Below, piece after piece: positions 1-64,000 of a stretch of 64,000 bases of DNA (the first letter of the stretch is position 1; every line of letters begins with the position of its first letter). The notes under the pieces were generated by a model. The model saw only the letters and a list, made by a program, of their open reading frames with translations, ran no database searches and had not been told where the DNA came from. Position numbers and translations under genes: made by a program. Origin of the DNA: a virus; the IMG/VR virus record IMGVR_UViG_3300035193_000067, positions 99,408 to 163,407 of that record; one strand, written 5' to 3'.

Positions 1-3000
1 AAATAAGAATAATGCCCTCCATCATAAATAAAATCAGACGAGTTGATGTTCGATCCATCGATATGGTTAGGTGCGTTTAATGTGAGTGATGGTAATTGGT
101 AGACGACTATTTTATCACTCGCATTATCCAGGGAATATAATTTTCCTTCGTAAATATCAGTATAATTTCCCTGGAATGAAAAAGTGTTATTATACAGTTC
201 ATTTGTCAGATCATCTGGGTCTAAATATAATATTTTTTTAGAAGAGTAATCGCCAAGTGCAACACATAGTGTATTAAAAAACGGTGAGACAGATGAGGAA
301 GTTAGTGATGACACTACAACGCTGTATGCATTTGAGCTATCGTCAATCGCTCCTGTAGATGTATTAATATTTCTGACATAGACATCTGCAGTAGAAGTGT
401 TATCTCCATCCAACACAAATAATTTCTCACCCACAAAACACAGTGCATACGCCCGATTACTGATCCCTATTGGTCCAGCGATATTTGATAGTACATTAGT
501 ATCCATATTGTATTGAAAATAAGTTTTTGCCCCGTCGACAATATGTAATATACCATCCTTCTCTACAATTCCACCATAGCCTGCAACCAAAGCGGCTTGA
601 TATTTGGTTGTTGTTATGTTCAACAGAGGATTGTAAATACGTACGTTGACACCTGTAAAATAATATAATTTGTCATCAGGAGCTATAAACCCCCTAGTGT
701 AGGGAAGCAGTTCTGTTGCATCTAATATTTTTTCTCCAGTAATCCTATTATATACCCTGTTTTCAGACGCTATAGTACTTGTGACTATCACATGTTTTTC
801 ACCAATCATTATTGACTGATAATTAGCAGGAGTATCAATATTAAACTCCGATTCAGCAGTCAGACCCCTAAACTCGACCCCCGCATAGTCAGTACTTCCA
901 GTGGTCACACCGTTCGAAATTTTAAATTTCTGCGCCGTAGACGTGATCGATCCCTGCATGTTTCCAGGATTAACTTCATCCCCGCCTAAATACTCGTGAT
1001 TAGGTGCATGAGGACCAACTGCCAGAGGATCTGTGGAGGTACCTGTACCTGTCAAAGTTGAATCAGTTGATACAGTGCTTAAAAAACTTCCTGCAACAGA
1101 TCCTACAGTTATTGTACGAGATCCTTCAAGCCTTAATGATTCTTCTACTGTCCAATCCCCTCCAGTCCTGTTAATAATAAATCTCTGTATAGGCACAAAC
1201 TCAGCAACGAGTGAAGAAAACTCTCCAAGATTCAACTCCTGAGGATAATATTGTTGAGCCAAACTCAAAGAATCGAAGTAGTCCTGACCAGGAATGTAAA
1301 TGAATCTTGCCAATTGTGAAGCAGCATCTTTGGTAACAGGAAGAGCATAAAGGAAAACAACACCATACTTTGCAGTAGGAATATCTGTAAGCTGCCACGC
1401 ACCTCCAGTATACTGATTATATCTTGGAGCACCTGCATTTAAAGGAACTATGTCAGTAGAACCTGTAACCAGGTTAGTTAGAGCACCTGCACCTGTCAAA
1501 TACACTTGAGAGTAATTGTTTTGAGTATTGTGAACAAGCAGCCTGGATTTCCTATCCTCATCTGCAACAACACACTCAGAAACAATAGGACGCCTTTCAG
1601 AAGCTGTCGTACTGCTTAATACAATACCTGAAACATCACCACCTGAGTATCTGTAAGTACCATGCAGATTATGCATTTCCTCATGAGATGCAGTGCTCAT
1701 CCCACAACCGTGCATCTCTTCCAATCCAAAAAGGAATGTACCAGCACTGTTATAAACTACTGCACAGATCTGAACAGTATTAAAAGACCACGGCAAAGAA
1801 CTCCAGGTAAAACTGCCGTCATAATACAAGTACTGGGTAGTTGTAGGAGCAGCAGTATAAGAACTGGAAACCCAACCATTGGCTACTCCGATGTCATCAC
1901 CATTGTAAAGAGCTGATATATCAACTCCAGACAACGTTACTGTCCGTGCAGTAGTGTCTACTGCAGCCTGCTGATTATCCGGATCAGAAGTGTATTGAAA
2001 ACCTATAGGCTCCCCTGTTGCAGTAACATACCGAGACATTCTGGCGGCTGCAATTTCACCAGCTGCATCTACATGATAAAATTCATCAGTTGTAGAGCTA
2101 CCACCTTGAAGACCTGAAAGACCATTGTGTACAGGGATTCCTGAAGACGAAACAGGTGCACCAAAAGCTGATTGAACAATTAATGACGTTCCGGATTTTG
2201 CAACAATAACTTTCCCAACTCGAATAGAAAAATCCACAAGGTTGTCAGGTATATCTGAAGGAGGTAATGCATTTTGCGCTTCTTCAAGCGTATAAGAATT
2301 TAACCCGTAAACTACATATAAATTGGAACCGCTGAAATCAAGATATACCCAGTGTACTCCGTATTTATTGTTTGCCAGAGTCTGTAAAGATCCTGATCCA
2401 TCATCGTATTGAAGATTATCAATAGCTGTCTGGGATGATACTACAGTATGACCACCAATACCATCACGGTAGATATAATCAAAAGTATCTGCAACACTGG
2501 TATCAAAAGCTGAAGAAGTCTTCCTTCCTACTCCTCCATAAAAAACACCAGCGGTCAATTTTAAATTAAGAGTCCCGATTTCAGAGAGCATTGCCCCGTA
2601 TGCCCACTCAGCAATTGCAGATCCTCTACCAATTGCCACCTCAACAAATCTCTGGGTAAGAGCCATGTTGAAGTCAAGGAACCCATTGTCATAATTAACC
2701 AGAAGGACATCACTACCTTGACGGTATGCAAGATCAAGAGCTACTTTATCCCTGCTAAACAGTACTGCAGAGCTTGTCCCTGCAAGAACTGCAGGAGTAC
2801 CTGAGTTATAATCCACATAAATATAGTTGATACTGTTGTCAGTAAGAACTAAATCAGGAGTTGCAGAGAACTGCACAAAACCTGTATCAGATCCAACAGC
2901 AGCTGAATCCTTACAAAGAACTACACCGGAAGACACATCAACTGCACCTGTAGTAGCGCTTACAGTTACTAAACCGCCTGAGATAAGACCTCTACCCTGA

Positions 3001-6807: not shown

Positions 6808-8976
6808 TCAGAATTTCTGACCAGGTCTGAAAAGAGTGGTATCAAAAGCATTCTGAGATGCGTGCAATTTCTTGATCACATCTCTTCTCCTGCCGGAGTC
6901 CAGTCGAGATACTACAGAGTCCTTGATAATTCTGTCAAGACCTATTACACATCTGGCAAGGTCATCAGATCCTCTACCTCGGACAGATCCCTTCTTCGGA
7001 GAGATCACACGAGTCAGATCAGAGGATCTTCCCAAACGCAGCAACTCAACCAGGACTACAGACTCCCCAGACATAAGCTCTTCAGGCGTCCCCATCTGCA
7101 GAGCTCCTTCAGTAGTCAATCCTACCATATCCACAGGATCAGGAGGAAGCAGCTGCACCTTGTCTCCATACAGCTCCTGAATAAAATTCATGAAATCTGC
7201 TGACTTCAATGTCACTTTATTGGATTGTATCCCAAGATCTCGAATCCCCTGAATAAGCTGTGTTGAGTTCCACCTGTCGAATGCTACTGTAGCAATCTTC
7301 TGCTTCTTTTTGATCTCTTTAATGATATCCAATATACTATTAAAGTAAATCTCCCTACCTTTTGTAGGTACAATACGCATAGCCCAGTCAACCACGGTTA
7401 TAAGTTTGGCAAGATTCTCACCCTGTGAGAGAGCCTGCCCAGATCCTCCAGAGAGCATTCCACGTGCCATTGGGCAGTCAGGATCCATGTCCTCAGAACC
7501 TAACCTGACAGCTGTATCAGCAAAGCTTATGAAGCCTTCAGGAGCCTCTGAAGGTACTCTGATTTCAGGCATGCCCAGGTAGTGATCCGCATCCACATAC
7601 TCAGGATGTCCTCCCGCAAGTGCAAAGCTGTCAAAGGTTTCCCCGGCATCTCCAAATATGTATAGCGGACTTTTGAAATTGTAGGGACAGTCTGCCACTG
7701 CTGCCCCGTCATAATGTTTACCTGTTTTATCGGTAATGTGCAGTTTTTCAAAAGTGACTGTAGGTTTCTTCTCGTGGTCAATACATTTCCAAAATCTCAA
7801 AGGAGAATCAATAAGAGGTGTCTCAGCTGCCGGAGGATTTACACCAAAGTCACGCTCAGCACCTATTGCATCCTTTGCATACTCTTCATCGAAATCTGCC
7901 CGAGTAAACTGAGGATTGAACTCCCAGGTAGGACCTTTCCAGTACAAGGTCTTCTTCAGAGCTCCTTGAGAAGCCTTGGCATACAGCTGCATGGCTGCAT
8001 CGTCAATACTGATAGGACTGGTAACGTTGAGCATTATCCCGAAAAACTGAGGCAGCTGCATACGTCTGACAGCACCTCGGACAGTCTTTAAGGACTGGTT
8101 AAGCACACGATACAGCTCCTGTGCAGAAGTTTTCGACTCTGTTACAGACAGACGGGAGAGCTCATCAATTCCTGCGAAGATCCTTGTCTTACCGGCAATA
8201 CCGCCTGAGTTGCTGGACAACCTGTTAATACGCAACTGAAGATACTCATCAATTATTGCATCATCCAGCTCCTTGTATTTCCACAGACCAGTTTTACCAA
8301 TCTGCTGAGATTCCAGATTGGTAATGTATGCAACAGCCTTGTTCATCCATGGAGAGTTGTTTCTCATGGATCGGAATTTTGCATAAATTGTGTCACGGGC
8401 CTGCATGGCTGTGGAAGCTGCAAAAGAAATCTCGAAGGTCTCACCCAGGGCCTGTCCAAGCATCCTGGGGATAGCATGCCTACCGCCTCTGGAAGCTATT
8501 ACACGTAGGACATGCTCAATGTAACCTCCCATGTGAGCGCCAAAGAAGGACTTACCAGATCTCATGCCTGCGATGACAAGACCCTGATCGTAATGAGTGA
8601 CCATACCATCGTCAAGGAATTCATAGTAGGTTGTTCCACACTTGGGGCATTTGAAATCATTGTCTGCATCAGACCACTCAAGCAGTACTTCAGACTCCAG
8701 GTACTCACGGCCTTTTCCCCAGGGATCTGCCGATTCAATGTCCTGAGGATTGCAAACCTTACAACGTAAATTGAAAAAGTCTCTGAGAAGCTGATACTGT
8801 CGGGAATGCTGAAAAGTGGATGGTACATTCCAGTAGTCAGTACCTGTCACCCATTGAATAATGTTTGGAGCAAAAGTGCTTAGATATTGCTTTTCTTCGG
8901 CAAGCTGATCAGATCCGCCGATACGTGAATCAATTTGACTGGAAAGATCGTTGAGGAATTCTATGGAGGATTTCAT
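6808..8976 (-). CDS. terL: Terminase large subunit (packaging ATPase/nuclease)
   Basis: 722 residues, longer than the usual 450-600. Residues 137-143 (GMRSGKS) are the Walker A motif and 266-272 (IFAGIDE) Walker B with its catalytic Glu. The C-terminal RNase-H-fold nuclease shows its acidic residues at D443 (IFGDAG), D567 (VAFDRWN) and D671/672 (GSDDLARC). The extra length is partly an N-terminal insertion with two CxxC pairs (C72/C75, C110/C113), a probable zinc ribbon before the ATPase core. The protein cuts concatemeric DNA and drives it into the prohead with the portal and small subunit. The start has no strong ribosome site and lies 7 bases after the upstream stop, which suggests coupling. 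Confidence 0.95.
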   Translation of the reverse strand: MKSSIEFLNDLSSQIDSRIGGSDQLAEEKQYLSTFAPNIIQWVTGTDYWNVPSTFQHSRQYQLLRDFFNLRCKVCNPQDIESADPWGKGREYLESEVLLEWSDADNDFKCPKCGTTYYEFLDDGMVTHYDQGLVIAGMRSGKSFFGAHMGGYIEHVLRVIASRGGRHAIPRMLGQALGETFEISFAASTAMQARDTIYAKFRSMRNNSPWMNKAVAYITNLESQQIGKTGLWKYKELDDAIIDEYLQLRINRLSSNSGGIAGKTRIFAGIDELSRLSVTESKTSAQELYRVLNQSLKTVRGAVRRMQLPQFFGIMLNVTSPISIDDAAMQLYAKASQGALKKTLYWKGPTWEFNPQFTRADFDEEYAKDAIGAERDFGVNPPAAETPLIDSPLRFWKCIDHEKKPTVTFEKLHITDKTGKHYDGAAVADCPYNFKSPLYIFGDAGETFDSFALAGGHPEYVDADHYLGMPEIRVPSEAPEGFISFADTAVRLGSEDMDPDCPMARGMLSGGSGQALSQGENLAKLITVVDWAMRIVPTKGREIYFNSILDIIKEIKKKQKIATVAFDRWNSTQLIQGIRDLGIQSNKVTLKSADFMNFIQELYGDKVQLLPPDPVDMVGLTTEGALQMGTPEELMSGESVVLVELLRLGRSSDLTRVISPKKGSVRGRGSDDLARCVIGLDRIIKDSVVSRLDSGRRRDVIKKLHASQNAFDTTLFRPGQKF

Positions 8977-8983
8977 TTAAGAT

Positions 8984-9751
8984 TTAATCAGATTGTGAGG
9001 GATCTGATGTACTCACAGCAATAAAGTTGTTACTTTCTTCTAGCGTATATAATACATCTGGTTCAAGACCGTCTTCTCCTATATACCCTATTTTAACACG
9101 GGATCGTTCTACCTTACTATCCCAGTACTCAATAGAAATTTTACCTCGTTCACCTGCTGAAGCAGATCCTCCGCATCCTACCGTGGCAAATCCTTCAACA
9201 CCCACTTTAGCAGATCCTCCTGATCCTGCTGTAGCATACCCATAGTTATCAGCTACGGAAACCCCGTGATAGCCAGAAGTAGATCTACCTCCTATACCTG
9301 AAACTGAAGTTCCATAATCACCTGTACAGGAGACTCCGCACTTTCCTGATGTAGCAGATCCTCTGCAACCTGAAACAGCCATTGCAAGATCTCCTACAGA
9401 AACAGTAGCACCCACTACAGGACCTTGTGCTCCTTTTCTCATGATAAAATCTGTAGCAGATTTCTGATCCCCACAATGCTCTACATACCCTGATTGAAAC
9501 TCGACATGTGTGCTATGCTGCCGGATAGTACCATCTACACGAATTACCAACCACTTAGCTTCAGGAAACCAATCAATTACACCACCAAAACCACTGCCCC
9601 AAAAAAGACCATACAACCCACTATGATCAACTTCAGGATCCCAGTCAGCAGACTCCACATAACCCGATTCAGGCCATTGAAAACCTTTATAATCAGTAAG
9701 ATCCTCTTTACAAGTCCTCAAAACATAAACTGGATTATTTACACCACTCAT
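8984..9751 (-). CDS. VYVLRTC-module protein with octapeptide repeats (255 aa)
   Basis: Residues ~7-110 form the N-terminal module (VYVLRTCKEDL, GFQWPESGYVE, DWDPE, GLYGLFWG, WLVIRVDG, YVEHCGDQKSATDFI). I recall similar modules labelled DUF7666, but cannot check the name. Residues ~112-205 are about twelve octapeptide units of the form G-[ST]-[AVS]-[ST]-x-G-x-x, likely a beta-solenoid. The end has the family C-terminal module (ISIEYWD, GYIGEDGLEPDVLYTLEE). One of eleven related genes in the window. ATG 9751 shares one base with the upstream stop and has AGGAG before it. Function unknown. Confidence 0.8.
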   Translation of the reverse strand: MSGVNNPVYVLRTCKEDLTDYKGFQWPESGYVESADWDPEVDHSGLYGLFWGSGFGGVIDWFPEAKWLVIRVDGTIRQHSTHVEFQSGYVEHCGDQKSATDFIMRKGAQGPVVGATVSVGDLAMAVSGCRGSATSGKCGVSCTGDYGTSVSGIGGRSTSGYHGVSVADNYGYATAGSGGSAKVGVEGFATVGCGGSASAGERGKISIEYWDSKVERSRVKIGYIGEDGLEPDVLYTLEESNNFIAVSTSDPSQSD

Positions 9752-20637: not shown

Positions 20638-21498
20638 ATGGATCACTATTTAGTAATTTTGTATTTACTTGGGGTTTTACTTATTACATTTATTATTAGT
20701 ATTTCGTGGAAGTATTTATTAATTCGTTTTGATCGTAAAAAAGATATTTTCGGTGAGGGTGGTGGGGTGTATGTTTTAAGGACCTGCAATGAGGATTTAA
20801 CATCTTACAACGGTTTTCAATGGCCTGAATCAGGTCCTGTTGAAGCTCCTGACTGGGATCCTGCCGCAGAATGCGGCAATGGCCTCCACGGCCTCCTCTG
20901 GGGTCAAGGAGATGGAACATTGCTGGACTGGTCTTCTAAAGCCAAATGGTTGGTTGTTCGCGTAACAGGTCCTATCACAGATCTGAAGCAAAAGGTAAAG
21001 TTCCCGGCAGGCTACGTGGAATTCTGCGGGGACCGCAAAGCTGCCACAGAATTTATTATCTCTAAAGGGGCTGACCCTGCTAATACAGTTGGTGCTTTCA
21101 TTACTGTTGGAAATAATAAAACAGCTGCTACAGGTTACCAAGGAACTGCCACAGCCGGTGATGAAGGAACTGCTACAGCTGGTGATGAAGGAACTGCTAC
21201 AGCTGGTTACCAAGGAACTGCCACAGCAGGCTACCGAGGATCTGCCACAGCTGGCGATGGAGGATCTGCTACAGCAGGTAATTATGGAAAGGCTACAGCT
21301 AGCTGGAGAGGATCTGCCTCAGTTGGCTACCAAGGATCTGCAGCAGCCGGTAAGTTTGGTATGATTTCCATTAAGTACTGGGATGAAGAAGAAACACGAT
21401 ACAGGTTGAAAGTAGGGTACATTGGAGAAAAAGGTTTGAAACCCGACACTCTCTACAAACTGGATGAAAACAATGAATTTACAGAGGTGCAATCATGA
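20638..21498 (+). CDS. Membrane-anchored VYVLRTC-module repeat protein (286 aa)
   Basis: The only family member with an N-terminal transmembrane segment (residues ~4-30), followed by a basic stretch and then the usual module from residue ~44 (VYVLRTCNEDL, GFQWPESGPVE, LHGLLWG, EFCGDRKAATEFI). About ten octapeptides follow, nearly perfect at the DNA level (GTATAGDE, GTATAGDE, GTATAGYQ, GTATAGYR, GSATAGDG), then the C-terminal module (ISIKYWDE, GYIGEKGLKPDTLYKLDE). The near-identical repeats imply recent expansion. Probably inner-membrane located with the repeats on one face. The stop overlaps the macro-domain gene's start. Confidence 0.75.
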   Translation: MDHYLVILYLLGVLLITFIISISWKYLLIRFDRKKDIFGEGGGVYVLRTCNEDLTSYNGFQWPESGPVEAPDWDPAAECGNGLHGLLWGQGDGTLLDWSSKAKWLVVRVTGPITDLKQKVKFPAGYVEFCGDRKAATEFIISKGADPANTVGAFITVGNNKTAATGYQGTATAGDEGTATAGDEGTATAGYQGTATAGYRGSATAGDGGSATAGNYGKATASWRGSASVGYQGSAAAGKFGMISIKYWDEEETRYRLKVGYIGEKGLKPDTLYKLDENNEFTEVQS

Positions 21499-26776: not shown

Positions 26777-27187
26777 ATGGGAAATTTTAACAATAATGTA
26801 CTGGACCGTGAAGTAGTTGAAGTAGGTAACTCAAAAAGAGCTATTGTAGGTGATTATGGTAAAGCTGTTGCAGGTGCATGGGGTACAGCTTTAGCAGGTT
26901 ACTATGGGACTGCTGTAGCAGGTAGCTGGGGTACTGCCGAAGCAGGAGAGCATGGCACAGCTATTTCAGAGTATAAAGGTGTATCCAGAGTTAGCAGGGG
27001 TGGAAGAGCTGCCTCAGGTGAAAAAGGGCGTATTGAGATAGAATACTTTAACGACAATGAAGAAAGGGGTAGGGTTATAGTAGGTTACATCGGAGAGAAT
27101 GGATTAGAGCCCTACGTATTTTACCATCTTAATGAATCTCATGAACTAATTCCCGTTGAGGGCGAATGCGGAAGGAGACTGTCATGA
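26777..27187 (+). CDS. Octapeptide-repeat protein without the N-terminal module (136 aa)
   Basis: About eight octapeptide units (GTALAGYY, GTAVAGSW, GTAEAGEH) in residues ~17-85, then the C-terminal module (IEIEYFNDNEERGRV, GYIGENGLEPYVFYHLNE). Family member lacking VYVLRTC. AAAGAGA precedes the ATG. The stop overlaps the next gene. Confidence 0.75.
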   Translation: MGNFNNNVLDREVVEVGNSKRAIVGDYGKAVAGAWGTALAGYYGTAVAGSWGTAEAGEHGTAISEYKGVSRVSRGGRAASGEKGRIEIEYFNDNEERGRVIVGYIGENGLEPYVFYHLNESHELIPVEGECGRRLS

Positions 27188-33146: not shown

Positions 33147-33824
33147 ATGGAAGAGAATAAACCAGTATACGTTTTAAGGACCTGCAATGAGGATCTTACA
33201 TCGTACAACGATTTCCAATGGCCTGAATCAGGTCCTGTTGAAGCTCCTGACTGGGATTCGGAAGCGGTCTGCGGAAGAGGTCTGCATGGTATCCTGTGGG
33301 GTCAAGGAGCTGTTGACCTGCTAGACTGGTCTCCTGCAGCCAAATGGTTGGTTGTTAGCGTAACAGGACCTGTAGTAGATCTGAGGCAGAAAGTAAAATT
33401 TAAATCAGGTTATGTAGAGTTCTGCGGGGACCGCAAAGCTGCCACAGATTTCATTATCGCTAAAGGCGCTGATCCTGCCAATGTTGTAGGCGCTACAGTT
33501 TCTGTCGGAGATAATCAAATAGCTGTTACTGGCTACCGAGGAACTGCCACAGCTGGCGATGGAGGAACTGCCACAGCAGGTAAATGGGGTGTTGCCACAG
33601 CCGGGAGGTATGGAACTTCCGTAGTAGGTGAATACGGAACTGCCACAGCTGGCGATGGAGGATCTGCTGAAGCAGGTGAAGGTGGTAGAATATCTATTGA
33701 GTACTGGGATGTAAAATCAGAGCGCTACAGACTGAAAACGGGGTACATTGGAGAAGATGGACTTCTCCCCAACGTACTGTACAAGTTGAACAGCTCTCAT
33801 GAGTTTGTACCGGTTGAAGATTAA
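33147..33824 (+). CDS. VYVLRTC-module repeat protein, complete type (225 aa)
   Basis: AAAGGAGA before the ATG. N-terminal module from residue ~7 (VYVLRTCNEDL, DFQWPESGPVE, LHGILWG, EFCGDRKAATDFI), about nine octapeptides (GTATAGDG, GTATAGKW, GVATAGRY, GTSVVGEY) and the C-terminal module (ISIEYWD, GYIGEDGLLPNVLYKLNS). Its N-terminal module is very close to that of 20638-21498, including long DNA identity, so the two arose by recent duplication or recombination. Confidence 0.8.
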   Translation: MEENKPVYVLRTCNEDLTSYNDFQWPESGPVEAPDWDSEAVCGRGLHGILWGQGAVDLLDWSPAAKWLVVSVTGPVVDLRQKVKFKSGYVEFCGDRKAATDFIIAKGADPANVVGATVSVGDNQIAVTGYRGTATAGDGGTATAGKWGVATAGRYGTSVVGEYGTATAGDGGSAEAGEGGRISIEYWDVKSERYRLKTGYIGEDGLLPNVLYKLNSSHEFVPVED

Positions 33825-35214: not shown

Positions 35215-35886
35215 ATGAATAATTCTATTAAAACTGCAGAAAATCATGAAACAGTTAATGCAGGAGATTATCAGACAGCTGTAGCAGGACATTACGGTAC
35301 AGCTATTACAGGTTTGTGTGGAGTATCTGTTGCAGGAGTAGGAGGACGTGCTGCCGCAGGACAATTCGGAGTTATTGTCATAAAGTACAACCCAAACAAC
35401 GGATTTCAGTACAGGATAAAATCAGGTAATATTGGAGAAAATGGGTTAAAACCGAATACGTTATATGAACTCAACTCTGACTACGAGTTTACCCCTGTAA
35501 CCGAAAATGCAGGAGATCATCAGGAAGTGAAAGTAGGAGACTACATGACAGCTGTGGCAGGCGATGCCAGTCTTGCCGAAGCTGGAGAGAGTGGAACCGC
35601 TGTAACAGGTGACTGGGGGAGATCTATAACAGGTTGTGGTGGACATTCCAAAGCAGGTAGATATGGACTTGCTGAGTCAGGAAACTATGGTATATCTGAA
35701 GTAGGATGCAACGGTCATGCACGATCTGGGTACGACGGTTGGATCTATATTCAGTACTGGGATGCTGCTACAGATTCTTACAAAGTAAAAAAATCCGGAG
35801 TAGGTATTGGTGGAGTAACTCCCTATACTTTTTATAAATTGGATGAAAACAATGAGTTTGTTCCAGTAGAAGAAGAGGAAGAGTAA
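35215..35886 (+). CDS. Octapeptide-repeat protein with doubled repeat and C-terminal module (223 aa)
   Basis: Architecture: repeats, C-terminal module (residues ~55-95, NIGENGLKPNTLYELNS), repeats again (~100-175), second C-terminal module (GVTPYTFYKLDENNEFVPV). The N-terminal VYVLRTC module is absent. An internal duplication is the simplest origin. It is driven by the promoter at 35141. Confidence 0.75.
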   Translation: MNNSIKTAENHETVNAGDYQTAVAGHYGTAITGLCGVSVAGVGGRAAAGQFGVIVIKYNPNNGFQYRIKSGNIGENGLKPNTLYELNSDYEFTPVTENAGDHQEVKVGDYMTAVAGDASLAEAGESGTAVTGDWGRSITGCGGHSKAGRYGLAESGNYGISEVGCNGHARSGYDGWIYIQYWDAATDSYKVKKSGVGIGGVTPYTFYKLDENNEFVPVEEEEE

Positions 35887-37383: not shown

Positions 37384-37803
37384 TTACAGGTCTGGAGGAT
37401 AACTGGATAACGTATCGGAGATTAAATCAAATATATCAGACATCTCTACCAGTTGAAATTTGTACAAAGTTGCTACGGAGTCGAGTAGCTTATCTCTCAG
37501 TTCCTGCTTCAGTTCCTCCCTAATCTCTTGTCGATACATTTGTTTAAACTCGAACAGCTCCTCTCTCATTTCACTCTCCAGTTCTGCCCGATGCATTTGT
37601 TTGAGTTCGAACAGTTCTTCGGCAGAGATCTGTTTGAGGTTCCAGTTGGTCAGCGCTTCCCGATAGTTGCTGAAATGTGGTGTAGAGCTGAGGCAGTTTG
37701 GGCAAACAAGTGCAACAGTTCCTTTAGAAGAGCTGTGATTAGGGAGCTCATGAGAGACTACAGGAGCCCTGCCGCAGTCCTGGCAAAGTCTTGGTTCAGT
37801 CAT
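37384..37803 (-). CDS. Lar-like zinc ribbon plus coiled coil (139 aa)
   Basis: Residues 7-55 have CQDCGRAP, LVCPNCLSS and YREALTNWN, the two-CxxC and EA-x-x-WN pattern of Lar-type restriction-alleviation zinc ribbons. Residues ~60-115 contain a repeated charged helix (EELFELKQMHRAELESEM, EELFEFKQMYRQEI). A role against host restriction is possible but the extension is unusual. Overlaps the upstream gene by eight bases. Confidence 0.6.
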   Translation of the reverse strand: MTEPRLCQDCGRAPVVSHELPNHSSSKGTVALVCPNCLSSTPHFSNYREALTNWNLKQISAEELFELKQMHRAELESEMREELFEFKQMYRQEIREELKQELRDKLLDSVATLYKFQLVEMSDIFDLISDTLSSYPPDL

Positions 37804-38272
37804 TGTTTACCTCTTCAACCGGTACAAACTCATTAGAGCTGTTCAGTCTGTACAGTACATTAGGGAGAAGTCCATCTTCTCCGATAGTTTCTGCTATAGA
37901 TCCATATATGCGGAATCCATTATCCCGATAATCTATACAAATCTCTCCACCTTTTCCTGCAGATACAGACCCTCCAACACCTGCATGAGCGTATCCAAAG
38001 TCTCCTGTTATGGAGAGCCCGTTGGGTCCTGAGACAGACGTACCATGAGGTCCTGAGACAGATCTGCCGTAGTTTCCTGAGAGAGATATCCCTTTCTGTC
38101 CAGAGATAGCTGTCCCTTTATCTCCTGCTTTTGCCCTTCCACCGTCTCCTGTTATAGATAATCCTCTGGAACCTGAGGTAGATATTCCTGAGGTCTGTGT
38201 TACAGATACTCCGTAGTCTTTTGTAGAAGAAGCACCTTCGTATCCTGAATAAACTATTGTATGCTTTTTCAT
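37796..38272 (-). CDS. Octapeptide-repeat protein without N-terminal module (158 aa)
   Basis: Thirteen or so octapeptides (GLSITGDG, GTAISGQK, GISLSGNY, GTSVSGPN), richer in Ile/Ser than the other members, then the C-terminal module (IGEDGLLPNVLYRLNSSNEFVPV). Start shares one base with the upstream stop. Confidence 0.75.
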   Translation of the reverse strand: MKKHTIVYSGYEGASSTKDYGVSVTQTSGISTSGSRGLSITGDGGRAKAGDKGTAISGQKGISLSGNYGRSVSGPHGTSVSGPNGLSITGDFGYAHAGVGGSVSAGKGGEICIDYRDNGFRIYGSIAETIGEDGLLPNVLYRLNSSNEFVPVEEVNND

Positions 38273-47467: not shown

Positions 47468-47743
47468 TTAGGTAGGATCTGTCAGAGAGTAATCAGTCCA
47501 GGGCCAACAGTCATCTTCATGGTCGATTGTGAAAGATGTCAACCCACCACTGTAGCACAGGATCTTTCCATCATCTGTGAAATCTCCTGTTGCATAAGCT
47601 CTTTTCCAATTCTCATCATCCCAATCACGTACCCAGACAGGAGTATCTCTTGGTACTTCAGGTTTAGGTTCGAAAAGGAAGGATTTTACTTCAATGCAAC
47701 CTTTAAAATCTCCAGGTGTGCGCCATGAAGCTATCTCAATCAT
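47468..47743 (-). CDS. YSLTDP-family protein, single module (91 aa)
   Basis: The first 30 residues are unlike the family N-terminus; residues ~33-91 are one module (TPVWVRDWDDENWKRAYATG, DYSLTDPT). ATGA overlap with the upstream repeat-protein gene; GCAGGAGC before the ATG. The two families meet in one operon here. Confidence 0.65.
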   Translation of the reverse strand: MIEIASWRTPGDFKGCIEVKSFLFEPKPEVPRDTPVWVRDWDDENWKRAYATGDFTDDGKILCYSGGLTSFTIDHEDDCWPWTDYSLTDPT

Positions 47744-48534
47744 AGCTCCTGCTTCATGTCTGCTACAAGCATAACCCCACCTTCACCTGCAGCAGCCATT
47801 CCTTTAATTGCTGCCAGGGCTATACCTGTTTTACCTGCTCGGGCAGTACCTTTTGCTTTTGCAACAGCTATACCTCTGTCTCCTGCTAGAGCATTCCCTT
47901 TATAATTTACCACAGAAACCCCATCATCTCCGGATGCTGAAGAACCTTCCATACCTGAAACAGAAATACCTTCTCTATCCGAACGGGCAGATCCACTATA
48001 ACCTGCTACAGACACTCCCCAGATACCTGAATCAGAGATACCATATACTCCTGAAACAGAAATACCTTCAACACCTGAGACAGACGCACTCTCGTCATCT
48101 GAGATAGCCTTGCCTCGATCACCTGTTACAGAATTACTGTAATGTCCTGTTACAGCTGTTTGATAATCTCCCACTTTAACAAAGTTTCCTACCACAGTAT
48201 TCGGGTCAACTCCTTTGGAGATGATAAACTCTATTGCAGACTTCTGGTTTCCACAGTGCTCCACATAACCTGATTGGAATTTTATTTCATTGTTACCCAG
48301 GTAAAACAGTGGGACATCCACACGGACAACCAGCCATTTGGCTTCAGGTTCCCAACTCAAGAAACCTGGCCAACCATTACCCCAGAGAAGTCCATGGAGT
48401 CCTCCACCATAGATTATTGAAGGATCCCAATCAGGAGCTTCCACGTAACCGTGAGACGGCCACTGAAACCCTCCGTAAGATGTCAAATCCTCTCTGCAGG
48501 TCCTTAAAACGTATACCGGTTTAGTCTCTTCCAT
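47740..48534 (-). CDS. VYVLRTC-module repeat protein, altered C-terminus (264 aa)
   Basis: Complete N-terminal module (VYVLRTCREDL, GFQWPSHGYVE, LHGLLWG, EHCGNQKSAIEFI), then about sixteen octapeptides, several as GISVSG or GIAVA units. It ends ADMKQEL without the usual C-terminal module, so it was truncated or recombined. The start is ATG 48534; a GTG precedes it. Confidence 0.75.
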   Translation of the reverse strand: MEETKPVYVLRTCREDLTSYGGFQWPSHGYVEAPDWDPSIIYGGGLHGLLWGNGWPGFLSWEPEAKWLVVRVDVPLFYLGNNEIKFQSGYVEHCGNQKSAIEFIISKGVDPNTVVGNFVKVGDYQTAVTGHYSNSVTGDRGKAISDDESASVSGVEGISVSGVYGISDSGIWGVSVAGYSGSARSDREGISVSGMEGSSASGDDGVSVVNYKGNALAGDRGIAVAKAKGTARAGKTGIALAAIKGMAAAGEGGVMLVADMKQEL

Positions 48535-49118
48535 CACCTTACCTCTGTAAACTCATTGTCTTCATTCAGTTTGTAGAGAGTATCCGGTTTTAATCCATCT
48601 TCATTGATGTACCCAACCTTCAACCGTTCTCTGTCAGATTCCTTGTCAATATACACTATGGCAATGATTCCTTCAGCACCTGCTTTAACCCGCCCCTCAT
48701 AGCCTGATATAGCCATTCCTGCAGCTCCTGAGGCAGAGGTACCACCAAACAGTGATAAGGAGGTTCCTGCGTCTCCTGAGGTGGCTGAGCCCATATCCTG
48801 TGCCAGGGAGACTCCTGCATAACCTGAGACAGCTTCTCCCAGCGATTTTACTACAGAAACCCCATCGTTACCTGAGGAAGCCTTTCCTTTCATACCTGCA
48901 AAAGACATGCCTCTGTTTCCTGAAACTGACTGACCTTCTTCTCCTGAAAGGGAGGTACCTCCTGTAGCTGAAGCGGACTTTCCTTCAATGCCTGATACAG
49001 AAACTCCGTAAACTCCTGAAGAAGATACCCCACCGTCTCCTGATAACGCTGTTCCAAGGTTTCCTGCTGTGGCAGAGTCGTCATCTCCTGCCAGTGCGAT
49101 TTTAATGTTTTCTTTCAT
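48534..49118 (-). CDS. Octapeptide-repeat protein with borrowed leader and start (194 aa)
   Basis: Starts MKENIKIALAGDDDS, identical to the start of 49645-49914, then about seventeen octapeptides (GTALSGDG, GVSVSGIE, GTSLSGEE) and the C-terminal module (GYINEDGLKPDTLYKLNEDNEF). Together with 49115-49441 it equals one full-length family protein cut in two. ATGA overlap at the start. Confidence 0.75.
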   Translation of the reverse strand: MKENIKIALAGDDDSATAGNLGTALSGDGGVSSSGVYGVSVSGIEGKSASATGGTSLSGEEGQSVSGNRGMSFAGMKGKASSGNDGVSVVKSLGEAVSGYAGVSLAQDMGSATSGDAGTSLSLFGGTSASGAAGMAISGYEGRVKAGAEGIIAIVYIDKESDRERLKVGYINEDGLKPDTLYKLNEDNEFTEVR

Positions 49119-49137
49119 CGTGTTACTCCTTTTGTTT
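49078..49137. repeat. 60-bp perfect direct repeat, copy 1
   Basis: Covers ACAAAAGGAGTAACACG, the start codon and 13 codons (minus strand) of the 194-aa gene; identical to 49874-49933. Confidence 0.95.
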
Positions 49138-49441
49138 TTATGAAATCTACCGCCGAGGTTTGAGTACCGCTGTACAGTACATTTCCAGATCTGAATTTAA
49201 CCATACCATTCCCCAGTTCTACTGCAGGACCCTCGACAGATACAACCAACCATTTAGAAAAAGGTTGCCACTCGGTCCGGTAGTCTTTCTGACTCCAAAG
49301 AAACCCATACAACCCTTTAGCAATGCATATGTCATAAGACCAGTCAGGAGACTCTACATAACCTAATTCAGGCCAATGGAATCCCTGGGCTGTCATATTT
49401 GCGTTACAAGGAACCAGTAGATATAGCGCTGTATTATACAT
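49115..49441 (-). CDS. Isolated N-terminal module (108 aa), split from its repeat partner
   Basis: Diverged N-terminal module (LYLLVPCNANM, GFHWPELGYVE, YGFLWSQ, WLVVSVEG, NVLYSGTQTSAVDFI). After FIKTKG, where relatives continue KGADP, the frame runs into a copied ribosome site and stops. Overlaps the upstream gene by eight bases. Confidence 0.7.
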   Translation of the reverse strand: MYNTALYLLVPCNANMTAQGFHWPELGYVESPDWSYDICIAKGLYGFLWSQKDYRTEWQPFSKWLVVSVEGPAVELGNGMVKFRSGNVLYSGTQTSAVDFIKTKGVTR

Positions 49442-49652
49442 TAGCTTTAAACTCTTCCAGTGTCTTAAAGAATTGTTGCTGTATTTCTGCCGGAACCCTG
49501 GCTCGGTACAGTGCTTTTAAAGGAATTGGGGACTCTCCATAACTGAATGATGTTGTACTGTAATCAATGTCCCAATTTAAAACCCTGGGGCTTAAAGTAA
49601 GCGCTTCAGTCAGCGGATTTTCTATCAGATATTTTTTAAATTCTTCAGTCAT
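49434..49652 (-). CDS. Hypothetical protein, 72 aa
   Basis: ATG 49652 (MTEEFKKYLIENP) lies inside the end of the upstream gene with GGTGG nearby. Alpha/beta. Not recognised. Confidence 0.6.
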   Translation of the reverse strand: MTEEFKKYLIENPLTEALTLSPRVLNWDIDYSTTSFSYGESPIPLKALYRARVPAEIQQQFFKTLEEFKANV

Positions 49653-49914
49653 CGCATCCACCTATGCTGCTAGCTGCATTATATGCCGCCAGAATATTTT
49701 TAACCTGCTCCAATGAATCGTCGACAAAAGCGTCGCTAGATGGGTCTTCCCCGTAGATTAGCACTCCGTTTTTCTGCAATGACTCAGCCCAGTCAACTAC
49801 AAGATCCGCCAGAATCTTTATTTTATCAGTGTCATTATCACCACCGAATCCTAATAATGCTGTCTTACAATCATCGTCATCTCCTGCCAGTGCGATTTTA
49901 ATGTTTTCTTTCAT
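49645..49914 (-). CDS. Hypothetical protein, 89 aa
   Basis: ATG 49914 with AAAAGGAG upstream. Shares its first 14 residues with the 194-aa repeat protein through the 60-bp repeat, then continues with an unrelated acidic helical sequence. Not recognised. Confidence 0.65.
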   Translation of the reverse strand: MKENIKIALAGDDDDCKTALLGFGGDNDTDKIKILADLVVDWAESLQKNGVLIYGEDPSSDAFVDDSLEQVKNILAAYNAASSIGGCDD

Positions 49915-49933
49915 CGTGTTACTCCTTTTGTTT
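49874..49933. repeat. 60-bp perfect direct repeat, copy 2
   Basis: Same leader, start codon and MKENIKIALAGDDD codons, here in front of the 89-aa gene. Probably the donor, since a promoter stands upstream of it. Confidence 0.95.
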
Positions 49934-49983: not shown

Positions 49984-50012
49984 ACCATAATACCTGTTTC
50001 AGGATCTGTCAA
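49984..50012 (-). promoter_or_regulatory. Promoter
   Basis: TTGACA 50012-50007, 17 bases, TATGGT. It overlaps the end of the amber-interrupted frame. Confidence 0.6.
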
Positions 50013-50016
50013 GATA

Positions 50017-50253
50017 TTAGAAGGTGTTTATTAAATCTAGCACCAAAGTAGCTAATAAAAAAATCAGTGGAAGCAGTAATGTCATCAACATCAACCCTGA
50101 GTATTCAAACAGGTTTACCAGGAACTTTTTAAAAGGCGTTTCCCTGAACATAGACTGTATATACTGCTTATTCTGTTTCTCCTGGAAGGGCTACTCCAGA
50201 ATCAAAAGTACCTGTACCACCCCCATACAGAGATAATCGTCAGCTGCTCCCAT
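50017..50253 (-). pseudogene. Small membrane protein gene interrupted by an in-frame amber codon
   Basis: AAAAGGAGAAAG precedes ATG 50253 (MGAADDYLCMGVVQVLLILE), then TAG at 50193-50191, then the same frame stays open for 57 codons (PFQEKQNKQYIQSMF...) ending with a transmembrane helix (LMTLLLPLIFLLATLVLDL). The unbroken frame, strong start and sensible C-terminus suggest one 78-codon gene. Readthrough, reinitiation at the Met codon 35, or decay are all possible; neither tRNA in the window reads UAG. Confidence 0.6.
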
Positions 50254-50488
50254 TGTCTTTCTCCTTTTGTGTGTCAGTTTCATACTTCCAACCATTTTTA
50301 TCCCAACAATTAGGACAATATATCCACTCAAACTGGTCTCTTTCCCGTAAGTTCCCTTCAGTAATAATTCCTGCAGTTCTCCATCCTAGATTATTTATAT
50401 CAGGATTTGGTGCTATTTCCTGCTCGCAATTACCATAACCCCCATCACAAAGTAACAATACCAGCTTACCTTGTTTATACTCTCTCAT
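50240..50488 (-). CDS. Zinc-ribbon-like protein, 82 aa
   Basis: ATG 50488 (MREYKQGK) follows GGGAGGGG. LLCDGGYGNC and IYCPNCW supply four Cys. Overlaps both neighbours. Not recognised. Confidence 0.6.
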   Translation of the reverse strand: MREYKQGKLVLLLCDGGYGNCEQEIAPNPDINNLGWRTAGIITEGNLRERDQFEWIYCPNCWDKNGWKYETDTQKEKDNGSS

Positions 50489-52727: not shown

Positions 52728-52745
52728 TTCATTTTACCTTTTCTT

Positions 52746-52877
52746 TCATGAGACGATAGATTTAATCTTGTTAATAATACCTTTACGGACTTTACCTTCA
52801 TTGAACAGTTTGTCAACCAGCAGCAAGCCCAACAATACTTTCACTTTGTTTTCTTTTACTGTTTTTACTATATCCAT
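52746..52877 (-). CDS. 43-aa copy of the C-terminal tail of the BspA-type protein
   Basis: MDIVKTVKENKVKVLLGLLL... closely matches the tail of 52879-53604 (VVKTVKENKVKVLLGFLA). AAAGG lies 9 bases before ATG 52877. A short amphipathic or membrane-inserted peptide made by partial gene duplication. Confidence 0.6.
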   Translation of the reverse strand: MDIVKTVKENKVKVLLGLLLVDKLFNEGKVRKGIINKIKSIVS

Positions 52878-52878
52878 T

Positions 52879-53604
52879 TTACTCATCCTTTCCTGTTACG
52901 ATAGATTTAACCTTGCTAACGATACTTTTACGAACGTTACCTTTGTTGAGAATCTGTTCAGCAACAATAATTGCCGCCAGAAATCCTAACAATACTTTCA
53001 CTTTGTTTTCTTTTACTGTTTTTACTACTTCTTTTGCCTTCATTTCTGACTCCTTTAGTCTAGTTGTCTCCAGAATTATCTCTGGTGTTGTTTTTACTTT
53101 TGGCTCTCCATATGCATAAGTATAAGCGCCATTAAACATATCGTGTATATCTGTTGTAGTTGAAATCTCCCAAGTTGATAAGTTTTGATTAAATGATTTG
53201 GCATAACTAAACATCCATCTCATATCAGTTACGTTTGAAACATCCCAATTTGAAATATCACCATTAAATAATGAACTATGAAACATCCATCTCATATTAG
53301 TTACGTTTGAAACATCCCAATTTGAAATATCACCATTAAACACTGATCCACTAAACATCCATCTCATATCAGTTACGTTTGAAACATCCCAATTTGAAAT
53401 ATCACCATTAAACACTGATCCACTAAACATACAAGACATATCAGTTACGTTTGAAACATCCCAATTTGAAATATCTTGGTTAAATGAGGTATTACAGAAA
53501 AAAAGCCCGTTCATATCAGTTATACTTGATACGTCCAGTTCTGTTACATCCTCGCCAGCTTTAATCAAATCCTGAAGTTCTTGTTTATTTTTTACTTTTT
53601 TCAT
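52879..53604 (-). CDS. BspA-type (DUF285) repeat protein with membrane tail (241 aa)
   Basis: Residues ~20-150 are five or six copies of the ~26-residue unit FNGDISNWDVSNVTDMRWMF, the hallmark of BspA/DUF285 leucine-rich-like repeats known from surface proteins of Mycoplasma, Fusobacterium and others. No signal peptide is seen; instead the C-terminus has a basic helix and a hydrophobic stretch (VLLGFLAAIIVAEQIL). Several repeats are identical at the DNA level. Such proteins in phage genomes are uncommon. Function unknown. Confidence 0.8.
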   Translation of the reverse strand: MKKVKNKQELQDLIKAGEDVTELDVSSITDMNGLFFCNTSFNQDISNWDVSNVTDMSCMFSGSVFNGDISNWDVSNVTDMRWMFSGSVFNGDISNWDVSNVTNMRWMFHSSLFNGDISNWDVSNVTDMRWMFSYAKSFNQNLSTWEISTTTDIHDMFNGAYTYAYGEPKVKTTPEIILETTRLKESEMKAKEVVKTVKENKVKVLLGFLAAIIVAEQILNKGNVRKSIVSKVKSIVTGKDE

Positions 53605-53636: not shown

Positions 53637-54302
53637 TCAGTACTGTACAAAATCATGCTGTTCATTCAAAGTATACAGTACGTAAGGTTCTAAAGTACCA
53701 TCTCCCGTATACCCTACTTTAACATAACTACGCTTACCTGCCCTGTCAAGGTATTTTATGCATATTTTACCAAATTCTCCTGCAGATGCTGACCCGGCTA
53801 CACCTACAGACGCAGTTCCCATATCACCTGTAAGAGCTTTGCCACCTTGCCCTGCTGAAGAATTACCATAATCACCTGATACTGCTTCTCCGCAGTTTCC
53901 TGCACAAGAAGTCCCGTGATATCCTGTAACAGATGTTTGATAATCTCCAACAGTAATTGAGGCACCTACAACATTTGATGGGTCAGCACCTTTCTCAATA
54001 ATGAAATCTGTGGCAGATTTACGGTCTCCACAGAACTCCACAAAACCTGATTTAAATTTTACACACCTCCCCAGGTCTACAACTTTTCCATCAACTCGGA
54101 CTACCAGCCATTTAGCGGTAGGCGACCAGTCAAGAAAATAACCATCTCCCCGACCCCACAGGAGGCCATATAACCCTTTACAATTACTAACAGAAGGATC
54201 CCAGTCATTAGCTTTAACAAAACCTGATGCAGGCCACTGGAATCTGTGAGAGGATGATAAATCTTCTTTGCAGGTCCTTAGAACGTACACAGGTTTAGTC
54301 AT
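53637..54302 (-). CDS. VYVLRTC-module repeat protein, complete type (221 aa)
   Basis: ATG 54302 (MTKPVYVLRTCKEDL) follows GGAAGGAG. N-terminal module, about nine octapeptides (GTSCAGNC, GEAVSGDY, GKALTGDM, GTASVGVA) and the C-terminal module (ICIKYLDRAG, GYTGDGTLEPYVLYTLNE). Overlaps the HicB-like gene by eight bases. Confidence 0.8.
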   Translation of the reverse strand: MTKPVYVLRTCKEDLSSSHRFQWPASGFVKANDWDPSVSNCKGLYGLLWGRGDGYFLDWSPTAKWLVVRVDGKVVDLGRCVKFKSGFVEFCGDRKSATDFIIEKGADPSNVVGASITVGDYQTSVTGYHGTSCAGNCGEAVSGDYGNSSAGQGGKALTGDMGTASVGVAGSASAGEFGKICIKYLDRAGKRSYVKVGYTGDGTLEPYVLYTLNEQHDFVQY

Positions 54303-54660
54303 CATCATCTCCTTCCAGAATCTCTTTGGATCTCTGCATCGCAAACTTATAGATCTCTTCGCAATCCTCTTCAGTCAGCTTTCGAATATCTGCATAAGGA
54401 TCCTCCGGCAGTGGATAATTGGATCTGAAGAGAGGTTCAGGTGTTTCTCTACCTCTTTCCAGGAAGTAATAAATAACATCATCTTTTACGCTTTTCAGCA
54501 ATGTCAGAGCCTCCTCTTCAGAGTCTCCTACAGCACTGCAGGCAGAATGACCAAAGTCCGGAAGATATGCGTAATAGAGCACCTCAAAAGTATCACAATC
54601 AACCATTTCATGGACTGCTGCATAATATTTGATGCTTAACACGTCTTCAAGCTTACTCAT
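54295..54660 (-). CDS. HicB-like protein, 121 aa
   Basis: YAYLPDFGHSACSAVGDSEE followed by ALTLLKSVKDDVIYYFLERG is the HicB-like fold; residues ~70-121 are an acidic extension ending GDDDD. No HicA toxin adjacent. Second such gene in the window (see 18820-19113). Confidence 0.7.
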   Translation of the reverse strand: MSKLEDVLSIKYYAAVHEMVDCDTFEVLYYAYLPDFGHSACSAVGDSEEEALTLLKSVKDDVIYYFLERGRETPEPLFRSNYPLPEDPYADIRKLTEEDCEEIYKFAMQRSKEILEGDDDD

Positions 54661-63784: not shown

Positions 63785-64000
63785 TTATCCATAAAGCACA
63801 AACCTGTGATTAGACCCCAACCTGTACAATTGATTACTAAGAAGATTTTTACCATCAATGACACCAGTTTTCACTTTCAAGCTTTGTGTACAGGAGCACC
63901 AATACTGAATAGAAATCTTCCCACCCTTTCCTGCCGCAGCACGTCCACACTCCCCCACCTTGGCATGACCTTCATCTCCAACTATTGCAACACCTCGAAC
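63785..64000 (-). CDS. Octapeptide-repeat family protein, C-terminal part only
   Basis: 71 residues visible, N-terminus outside the window. Three octapeptides (GVAIVGDE, GHAKVGEC, GRAAAGKG) and a diverged C-terminal module (ISIQYWC, TGVIDGKNLLSNQLYRLGS). Eleventh member of the family here. Confidence 0.7.
   Translation of the reverse strand, partial: VRGVAIVGDEGHAKVGECGRAAAGKGGKISIQYWCSCTQSLKVKTGVIDGKNLLSNQLYRLGSNHRFVLYG

What the first reader, a model, noticed from the sequence alone, without database searches (positions are those of the whole stretch)
49078..49933. 60-bp direct repeat copies a ribosome site and start codon into a repeat-protein gene and splits it
49078-49137 and 49874-49933 are identical and carry ACAAAAGGAG, the ATG and 13 codons. 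In the first copy this block sits exactly between an isolated N-terminal module (ending FIKTKG) and a repeats-plus-C module. Relatives read FII-x-KGADP at that point, so the exchange may have happened at the AAAGG shared by the ribosome site and the KG codons. A promoterless start has thus been created inside a gene, a clear snapshot of how modules are cut apart.
Basis: seen in the sequence. Interest (0 to 1): 0.62.

Follow-up and report, generated by a model that had tools for sequence, protein, structure and literature searches.

The report
Copied gene start splits phage gene
In an uncultured phage, a 60-letter piece of DNA holding a ribosome site, a start codon and 13 codons occurs twice, 796 bases apart, and one copy lies exactly where a two-part repeat-protein gene is cut into two genes; the same kind of copied gene start is already seen in phage T4, so this is an instructive but not unprecedented example.

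Summary
In detail: 49078-49137 and 49874-49933 are identical over 60 nt (two copies in the 163-kb virus record; chance gives 15-17 nt). One copy sits between an N-module gene (ends FIKTKGVTR*, ATGA overlap) and a repeats-plus-C gene. Six paralogous N modules in the record are unsplit there, relatives in other phages are N-R-C too, and AlphaFold places the cut at the domain boundary, so fission is the derived state. The replaced stretch is 37 nt against 38 in an intact paralog: one exchange puts a stop in the N frame and a start in the repeat frame. The 'donor' gene is itself an octad-repeat gene at its start. The exchange point cannot be pinned to AAAGG. The N-only gene is on a branch about three times longer than its paralogs while the repeat-C part is not, so N was diverging before this recent copy: the copy need not have made the split. 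No relative with this locus was found, so direction stays inferred. Precedents: T4 ipII/ipIII (47 nt of RBS, start and leader shared by unrelated genes) and T4 alt.-2/alt.-1. Ordinary phage micro-recombination, nicely preserved.

The parts
49874..49933 (-). 60-nt block, copy A: ribosome site, ATG and 13 codons at the start of the 'up' gene
   Evidence: identical to copy B; first gene after a promoter-like site
49078..49137 (-). 60-nt block, copy B: ends the N-only gene (KTKGVTR*) and starts the R-C gene
49645..49914 (-). 'up' gene, 89 aa, MKENIKIALAGDDDDCKTALLGFGG...; octad-like at its start, body without known relatives
   Evidence: octad score in the unique part reached by 0.018% of control windows; scores as coding in frame
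49434..49652 (-). g2, 72 aa from ATG (75 aa from GTG at 49661), unknown, overlaps both neighbours
   Evidence: scores as coding in frame
49115..49441 (-). N-only gene, 108 aa, divergent DUF7666/phrog_18079 N module, ends at the copied block
   Evidence: phrog_18079 E 1.7e-12, DUF7666 below cut-off, long branch, 28 of 42 invariant residues kept
48534..49118 (-). R-C gene, 194 aa, octad-repeat solenoid plus C cap, started by copy B
   Evidence: phrog_18079 E 1.3e-26, predicted solenoid
47740..48534 (-). next gene: N module plus repeats without the C cap, 264 aa; closest unsplit comparison
49984..50012 (-). promoter-like TTGACA-17-TATGGT upstream of 'up'
   Evidence: 10 of 12 consensus matches; the number of such sites in the region is no higher than in shuffles
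53637..54308 (-). unsplit N-R-C paralog
33147..33824 (+). unsplit N-R-C paralog (AlphaFold model, pLDDT 96)
20638..21498 (+). unsplit N-R-C paralog; closest C module to the R-C gene (69%)
8984..9751 (-). unsplit N-R-C paralog
35215..35886 (+). stand-alone R-C gene without the 60-mer; its leader MNNSIKTA is the best match to MKENIKIA among 187 RBS-preceded starts
37796..38272 (-). stand-alone R-C gene without the 60-mer
26777..27187 (+). stand-alone R-C gene without the 60-mer

Best explanation
A short translation-start block (ribosome site, start codon, 13 codons) was copied within one phage operon between the starts of two octad-repeat genes 796 bp apart. At 49078-49137 it replaced the linker between the N domain and the repeat solenoid of an N-R-C gene: the N reading frame runs through the ribosome site into a TGA, and the overlapping ATGA starts the repeat-C frame, so two self-contained proteins should be made by coupled translation from one message. 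The copying was probably a gene-conversion or template-switch patch guided by short shared sequence (AAAGGAG on the left, GGAGAT and octad similarity on the right), most likely from the promoter-proximal 'up' gene to the junction. Shown: the identity, the replacement of the linker, the module boundary, the derived nature of the split. Inferred: direction, mechanism, expression of both parts. The split, or at least the drift of N, may be older than the present 60-nt identity, which could have been refreshed by later conversion.
For: Identity over 60 nt, two copies only. All six unsplit in-genome paralogs run from KG through a linker into the repeats, and outside relatives including BPP-1 Bbp36, Mica and D14O are N-R-C. 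N-only is nested in the in-genome clade, support 100/99. From AAAGGAG to GGAGAT the split gene has 37 nt against 38 in the 47740 paralog, and the repeats that follow are in register. In the AlphaFold model of the unsplit 33147 protein (pLDDT 96) the last N-domain helix ends at residue 105, KG is 106-107 and the solenoid starts at 117. 'Up' starts like a repeat gene: IALAGDDD and, outside the shared block, TALLGFGG each score as octads at a level reached by 0.018% of control windows. 'Up' is first after TTGACA-17-TATGGT. N-only, g2 and the 'up' tail all score as coding in their annotated frames. T4 recombines at 6-10 bp microhomologies (PMC9391042).
Against: No relative carries this locus, so the pre-split state is known only from paralogs. 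N-only has a terminal branch of 1.38 against 0.04-0.51 for the other six, while the R-C gene's C module is ordinary; with zero differences in 60 nt the copy is recent (95% upper bound about 0.05 per site), so the drift of N came mostly before it. The leader resembles that of the stand-alone R-C gene 35215, which fits R-C as native owner equally well.
Confidence: 0.5

Rival explanations
1. Deletion model: an N-R-C gene stood upstream of a stand-alone R-C gene with its own ribosome site; recombination at AAAGGAG removed the first gene's R-C and joined N to the second gene's start. The start of that R-C gene was separately copied to 'up'.
For: Stand-alone R-C genes with the same kind of ribosome site and leader exist in this genome (35215). 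AAAGG occurs in all six intact paralogs at the right place. It explains why N and R-C have such different rates.
Against: Needs two events. Identity with the other copy reaches 5 nt beyond AAAGGAG into N. The near-equal length, 37 against 38 nt, is then a coincidence.
Confidence: 0.22
2. Same block, opposite direction: the R-C gene (split earlier, by another path) is the native owner and its start was copied to the 'up' gene, giving that gene its ribosome site and first 14 residues.
For: IALAGDDD fits the octad pattern and continues in register in R-C but with a 3-residue offset in 'up'; leader similarity to the R-C gene 35215; N drift older than the copy.
Against: 'Up' has the promoter-proximal position, and its own unique part also begins with an octad. 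The ribosome site in the R-C copy lies in what is linker-coding sequence in every intact paralog.
Confidence: 0.18
3. The shared 14-residue leader is a functional tag kept by selection on unrelated proteins, like the capsid targeting sequence of T4 internal proteins.
For: T4 ipII and ipIII share 47 identical nt of ribosome site, start and leader before unrelated bodies, and that leader is a known targeting peptide (PMC9026906).
Against: Identity covers 19 nt of untranslated DNA and all synonymous positions. Only two proteins share the leader. Its last residues are part of the octad fold.
Confidence: 0.07
4. Assembly artefact: the repeat was created or its flanks mis-joined during metagenome assembly.
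For: Uncultured virus, single contig, reads not available; the only overlapping IMG/VR contig does not cover this locus.
Against: 60 bp is short for normal read lengths. Every gene around it scores as coding in frame and the junction makes a precise stop/start overlap.
Confidence: 0.03

Closest known systems
Bacteriophage T4 alt.-1 / alt.-2
   Same: Annotated in NC_000866 as a duplication of the first part of gene alt into which a stop codon and a new start were placed: one phage gene cut into two small neighbouring ORFs (the record's note is cut off after 'a stop codon and new')
   Different: There the whole 5' part of a gene was duplicated; here only about 60 nt of start region is shared, between two different genes
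Bacteriophage T4 ipII / ipIII start regions
   Same: 47 identical nt of ribosome site, ATG and leader codons in neighbouring genes 697 bp apart with unrelated bodies
   Different: The shared T4 leader is a functional capsid targeting sequence (PMC9026906); the T4 block does not split a gene
Split genes of T4-like phages (T4 39/60, Aeh1 nrdA, phage 25 gene 43)
   Same: One coding region of relatives cut into two (PMC2988022)
   Different: [quoted passage not shown] here by a short copied start region with no insertion
Bordetella phage BPP-1 Bbp36 (VR2)
   Same: Same N-repeat-C protein family with 24-bp repeats
   Different: Unsplit; there the repeat number varies (9-20 copies), function unknown and gene not essential (PMC2884959)
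Start Associated Sequences of cluster K mycobacteriophages
   Same: Repeated sequence at the ribosome site of several genes in one phage (PMC3203893)
   Different: 13 bp, 11-19 copies per genome, conserved between phages, no coding part; here two copies of 60 nt with coding sequence

Membership tests
phrog_18079 / Bbp36-type N-repeat-C proteins | N module (DUF7666-like) of about 105 residues ending in FI..KG | tested here: met
   N-only gene: phrog_18079 E 1.7e-12 over residues 3-102; home-made N profile E 9e-30; Pfam DUF7666 below its cut-off
phrog_18079 / Bbp36-type N-repeat-C proteins | octad repeats and C cap (GYIGE.GL.P..LY.L) | tested here: met
   R-C gene: phrog_18079 E 1.3e-26, solenoid and cap in the model
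phrog_18079 / Bbp36-type N-repeat-C proteins | N, repeats and C in one open reading frame | tested here: not met
   split by TGA/ATG at 49115-49118; N and repeats are in one frame in six paralogs, and N-R-C in BPP-1, Mica and D14O
Intragenomic copy of a translation-start block (as in T4 ipII/ipIII) | identical run through ribosome site, start codon and leader in two genes with unrelated bodies, beyond chance | tested here: met
   60 nt against a maximum of 12-19 in 20 simulations of start regions; T4 control gives 47 nt
Gene split by a copied start region (as in T4 alt.-2/alt.-1) | unsplit relatives exist and the split state is derived | tested here: met
Gene split by a copied start region (as in T4 alt.-2/alt.-1) | the copy itself caused the split | tested here: inconclusive
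   N-only drift appears older than the copy; no relatives of the locus
Gene split by a homing endonuclease | endonuclease gene at the cut | tested here: not met
   no gene lies between N-only and R-C; they overlap by 4 nt
Start Associated Sequences | short motif repeated at many gene starts | tested here: not met
   two copies only; no third copy even with up to 9 mismatches in the first 36 nt
Capsid targeting leader | leader directs proteins into the prohead and is cleaved | not testable with these tools
   no virion proteomics

The most novel reading that the evidence does not exclude
Phages use portable start cassettes (ribosome site, ATG and a short leader) as a recurrent unit of gene making: copied by short-homology recombination, they carve one gene into two or give a new body a strong start. 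In this record three pairs of starts with unrelated bodies share 23-60 identical nt through the start codon, including a four-gene array with the leader MKI(A/T)NEE(E/G)Y, and T4 shows three such pairs (18, 19 and 47 nt).
Probability: 0.15. Interest if true: 0.55.

Novelty: new member of a known kind. Interest (0 to 1): 0.32.

Why it matters
It is a readable case of a phage gene parted exactly at a domain boundary by a start region copied from a neighbour, with unsplit paralogs in the same genome for comparison. It adds to T4 alt.-2/alt.-1 and ipII/ipIII as evidence that start regions can move as units. It also warns that an identical repeat need not date the split next to it: here the N-terminal half was drifting before the repeat took its present form.

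Tried and rejected
Relatives of the locus: the full protein, the 'up' protein, paralog alignments, the C module, the terminase and the exact start sequence were sought in IMG/VR, and the paralog alignment in GTDB genomes; only an identical contig of the same virus covering another part, or distant N-R-C genes, came back. DNA similarity in annotated phages: none. Homing endonuclease at the cut: none. Fold comparison with the PDB for both models: nothing significant, so no biochemical role for the modules can be proposed. RNA structure around the two starts: energies no lower than shuffles. The idea that start copying is special to this virus was dropped after T4 gave the same number of pairs. 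A programmed frameshift joining N to R-C was considered, since the repeat frame is open 26 codons upstream of the ATG, but no standard slippery site was seen and a strong ribosome site makes it needless.

Full report
Observation. On the minus strand each carries AAACAAAAGGAGTAACACG, an ATG and 12 further codons plus two bases. Only these two copies exist in the 163,407-base virus record from which the window comes. Simulated sequence of the same composition has longest repeats of 15-17 nt. This is not chance.

Setting. On the minus strand the order is: a promoter-like site (TTGACA-17-TATGGT, 50012-49984), the 'up' gene (49914-49645), g2, the N-only gene (49441-49115), the repeats-plus-C gene (49118-48534), then an N-plus-repeats gene without the C cap (48534-47740). 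Neighbouring genes overlap. The 'up' tail, g2 and N-only score as coding in their annotated frames by the codon usage of the genome. N-only and R-C match the two ends of one family, phrog_18079, to which Bordetella phage BPP-1 Bbp36 with its variable repeats VR2 is related. In BMP-1 the 24-bp element of this gene occurs 9-20 times and the gene is not essential (PMC2884959).

The split is real and derived. The same record holds six other N modules covering the joint, all followed in frame by the linker and repeats; five of those genes keep the C cap and one, 47740, lacks it. Relatives in other phages are N-R-C in one frame. In a tree of N modules N-only lies inside the in-genome clade (support 100/99). 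AlphaFold of the unsplit 33147 protein (pLDDT 96) shows the last N-domain helix at 96-105, the KG at 106-107, a short linker, and the solenoid from 117: the cut is at the domain boundary. The R-C protein is predicted as a solenoid plus cap, with its first 36 residues of low confidence.

What the block did there. In the 47740 paralog, AAAGGAG and GGAGAT are 38 nt apart; in the split gene 37. In between, the linker codons are gone and the ribosome site, ATG and leader are present; the octads after it stay in register with the paralogs. One replacement thus gives a stop to the N frame (FIKTKGVTR*) and a start to the repeat frame (ATGA).

Which copy is native. The 'up' gene is first after the promoter-like site, and the ribosome site in the R-C copy lies where all paralogs have linker-coding sequence; both point to 'up' as source. 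But the leader's best match among 187 ribosome-site-preceded starts in the window is the stand-alone R-C gene 35215 (MNNSIKTA), and IALAGDDD is a good octad. The unique part of 'up' also starts with an octad, TALLGFGG, a score reached by 0.018% of 27,534 control windows, or 0.26% of stretches of that length. So 'up' is itself an octad gene at its start, and the exchange was between two related gene starts. I put up-to-junction first, without excluding the reverse.

N-only has a terminal branch of 1.38 changes per column against 0.04-0.51 for the other six, and keeps 28 of the 42 residues invariant in them; the C module of the R-C gene is as conserved as in its paralogs. The 60-mer shows no change at all, which bounds the divergence since copying at about 0.05 per site. 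Most of the drift of N therefore came before the present copy. Either N drifted while still joined, or the parting is older and the start block was copied or refreshed later. A 'clear snapshot' of the cut is not shown.

How common it is. Among 211 ribosome-site-preceded starts of this record, three pairs with unrelated bodies share 60, 23 and 23 nt through the start codon; 20 simulations of start regions never exceeded 19. One pair belongs to a four-gene array with near-identical ribosome site and leader MKI(A/T)NEE(E/G)Y; in the three closely spaced genes compared, the bodies are 22-28% identical, no better than shuffles. T4, run as a control over 150 kb, gives three such pairs too, with ipII/ipIII at 47 nt; there the leader is the capsid targeting sequence (PMC9026906). 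T4 alt.-2/alt.-1 is annotated as a duplicated gene part that received a stop and a new start. T4 also recombines readily at 6-10 bp of homology (PMC9391042). The phenomenon is thus of a known kind.

Limits. No relative of the locus was found in IMG/VR, GTDB genomes or annotated phages; an IMG/VR contig identical to this virus covers another part of it. Expression, interaction of the halves and function of the family are untested; fold searches gave nothing significant.

Noticed in passing
G000 record 7266-7863 (minus strand; outside the window, in L084): Four consecutive small genes share ribosome site, ATG and about 12 codons (MKI(A/T)NEE(E/G)Y..A) before apparently unrelated bodies; of the three spaced 166 nt apart, the first two end by reading through the next start block (GELNENN[QK]*). 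Reminiscent of the leader-sharing T4 internal protein genes.
   Followed up: partly
window 38694 (-) and 43956 (+): 23 identical nt of ribosome site and ATG (AACCAAAAGGAGAAAGATCATG and one more base) before unrelated genes on opposite strands.
   Followed up: partly
window 39397 and 39632 (+): Neighbouring unrelated genes share about 28 of 29 nt over the preceding stop, ribosome site, ATG and first codons.
   Followed up: partly
window 63785-64000 (-) and record positions 1-446 (-): The two ends of the record carry the C part and the N part of what looks like one N-R-C gene, as if a circular or circularly permuted genome had been opened inside the octad repeats; the record may be nearly complete.
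   Followed up: no
window 47740-48534 (-): N-plus-repeats gene that has lost the C cap (ends MLVADMKQEL), immediately downstream of the split gene.
   Followed up: partly
window 52730-53027: Two diverged copies of a DUF285 gene's 3' part (75 nt at 79%, 50 nt at 94%) next to its 72-nt repeats, another local duplication.
   Followed up: no
window 50150-50265 (-): A ribosome site and ATG open a short frame MGAADD..., and one frame over runs LSLYGGGTGTFDSGVALPGETE*, octad-like: possibly a decayed small repeat gene.
   Followed up: no
window 38744/56821 and 30448/43864: Dispersed 34-nt and 32-nt exact repeats that contain TTGACA-like promoter sequence (CTGTCAAGA, CTTGACAGGATCTG): promoter blocks also seem copied around this genome.
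   Followed up: no
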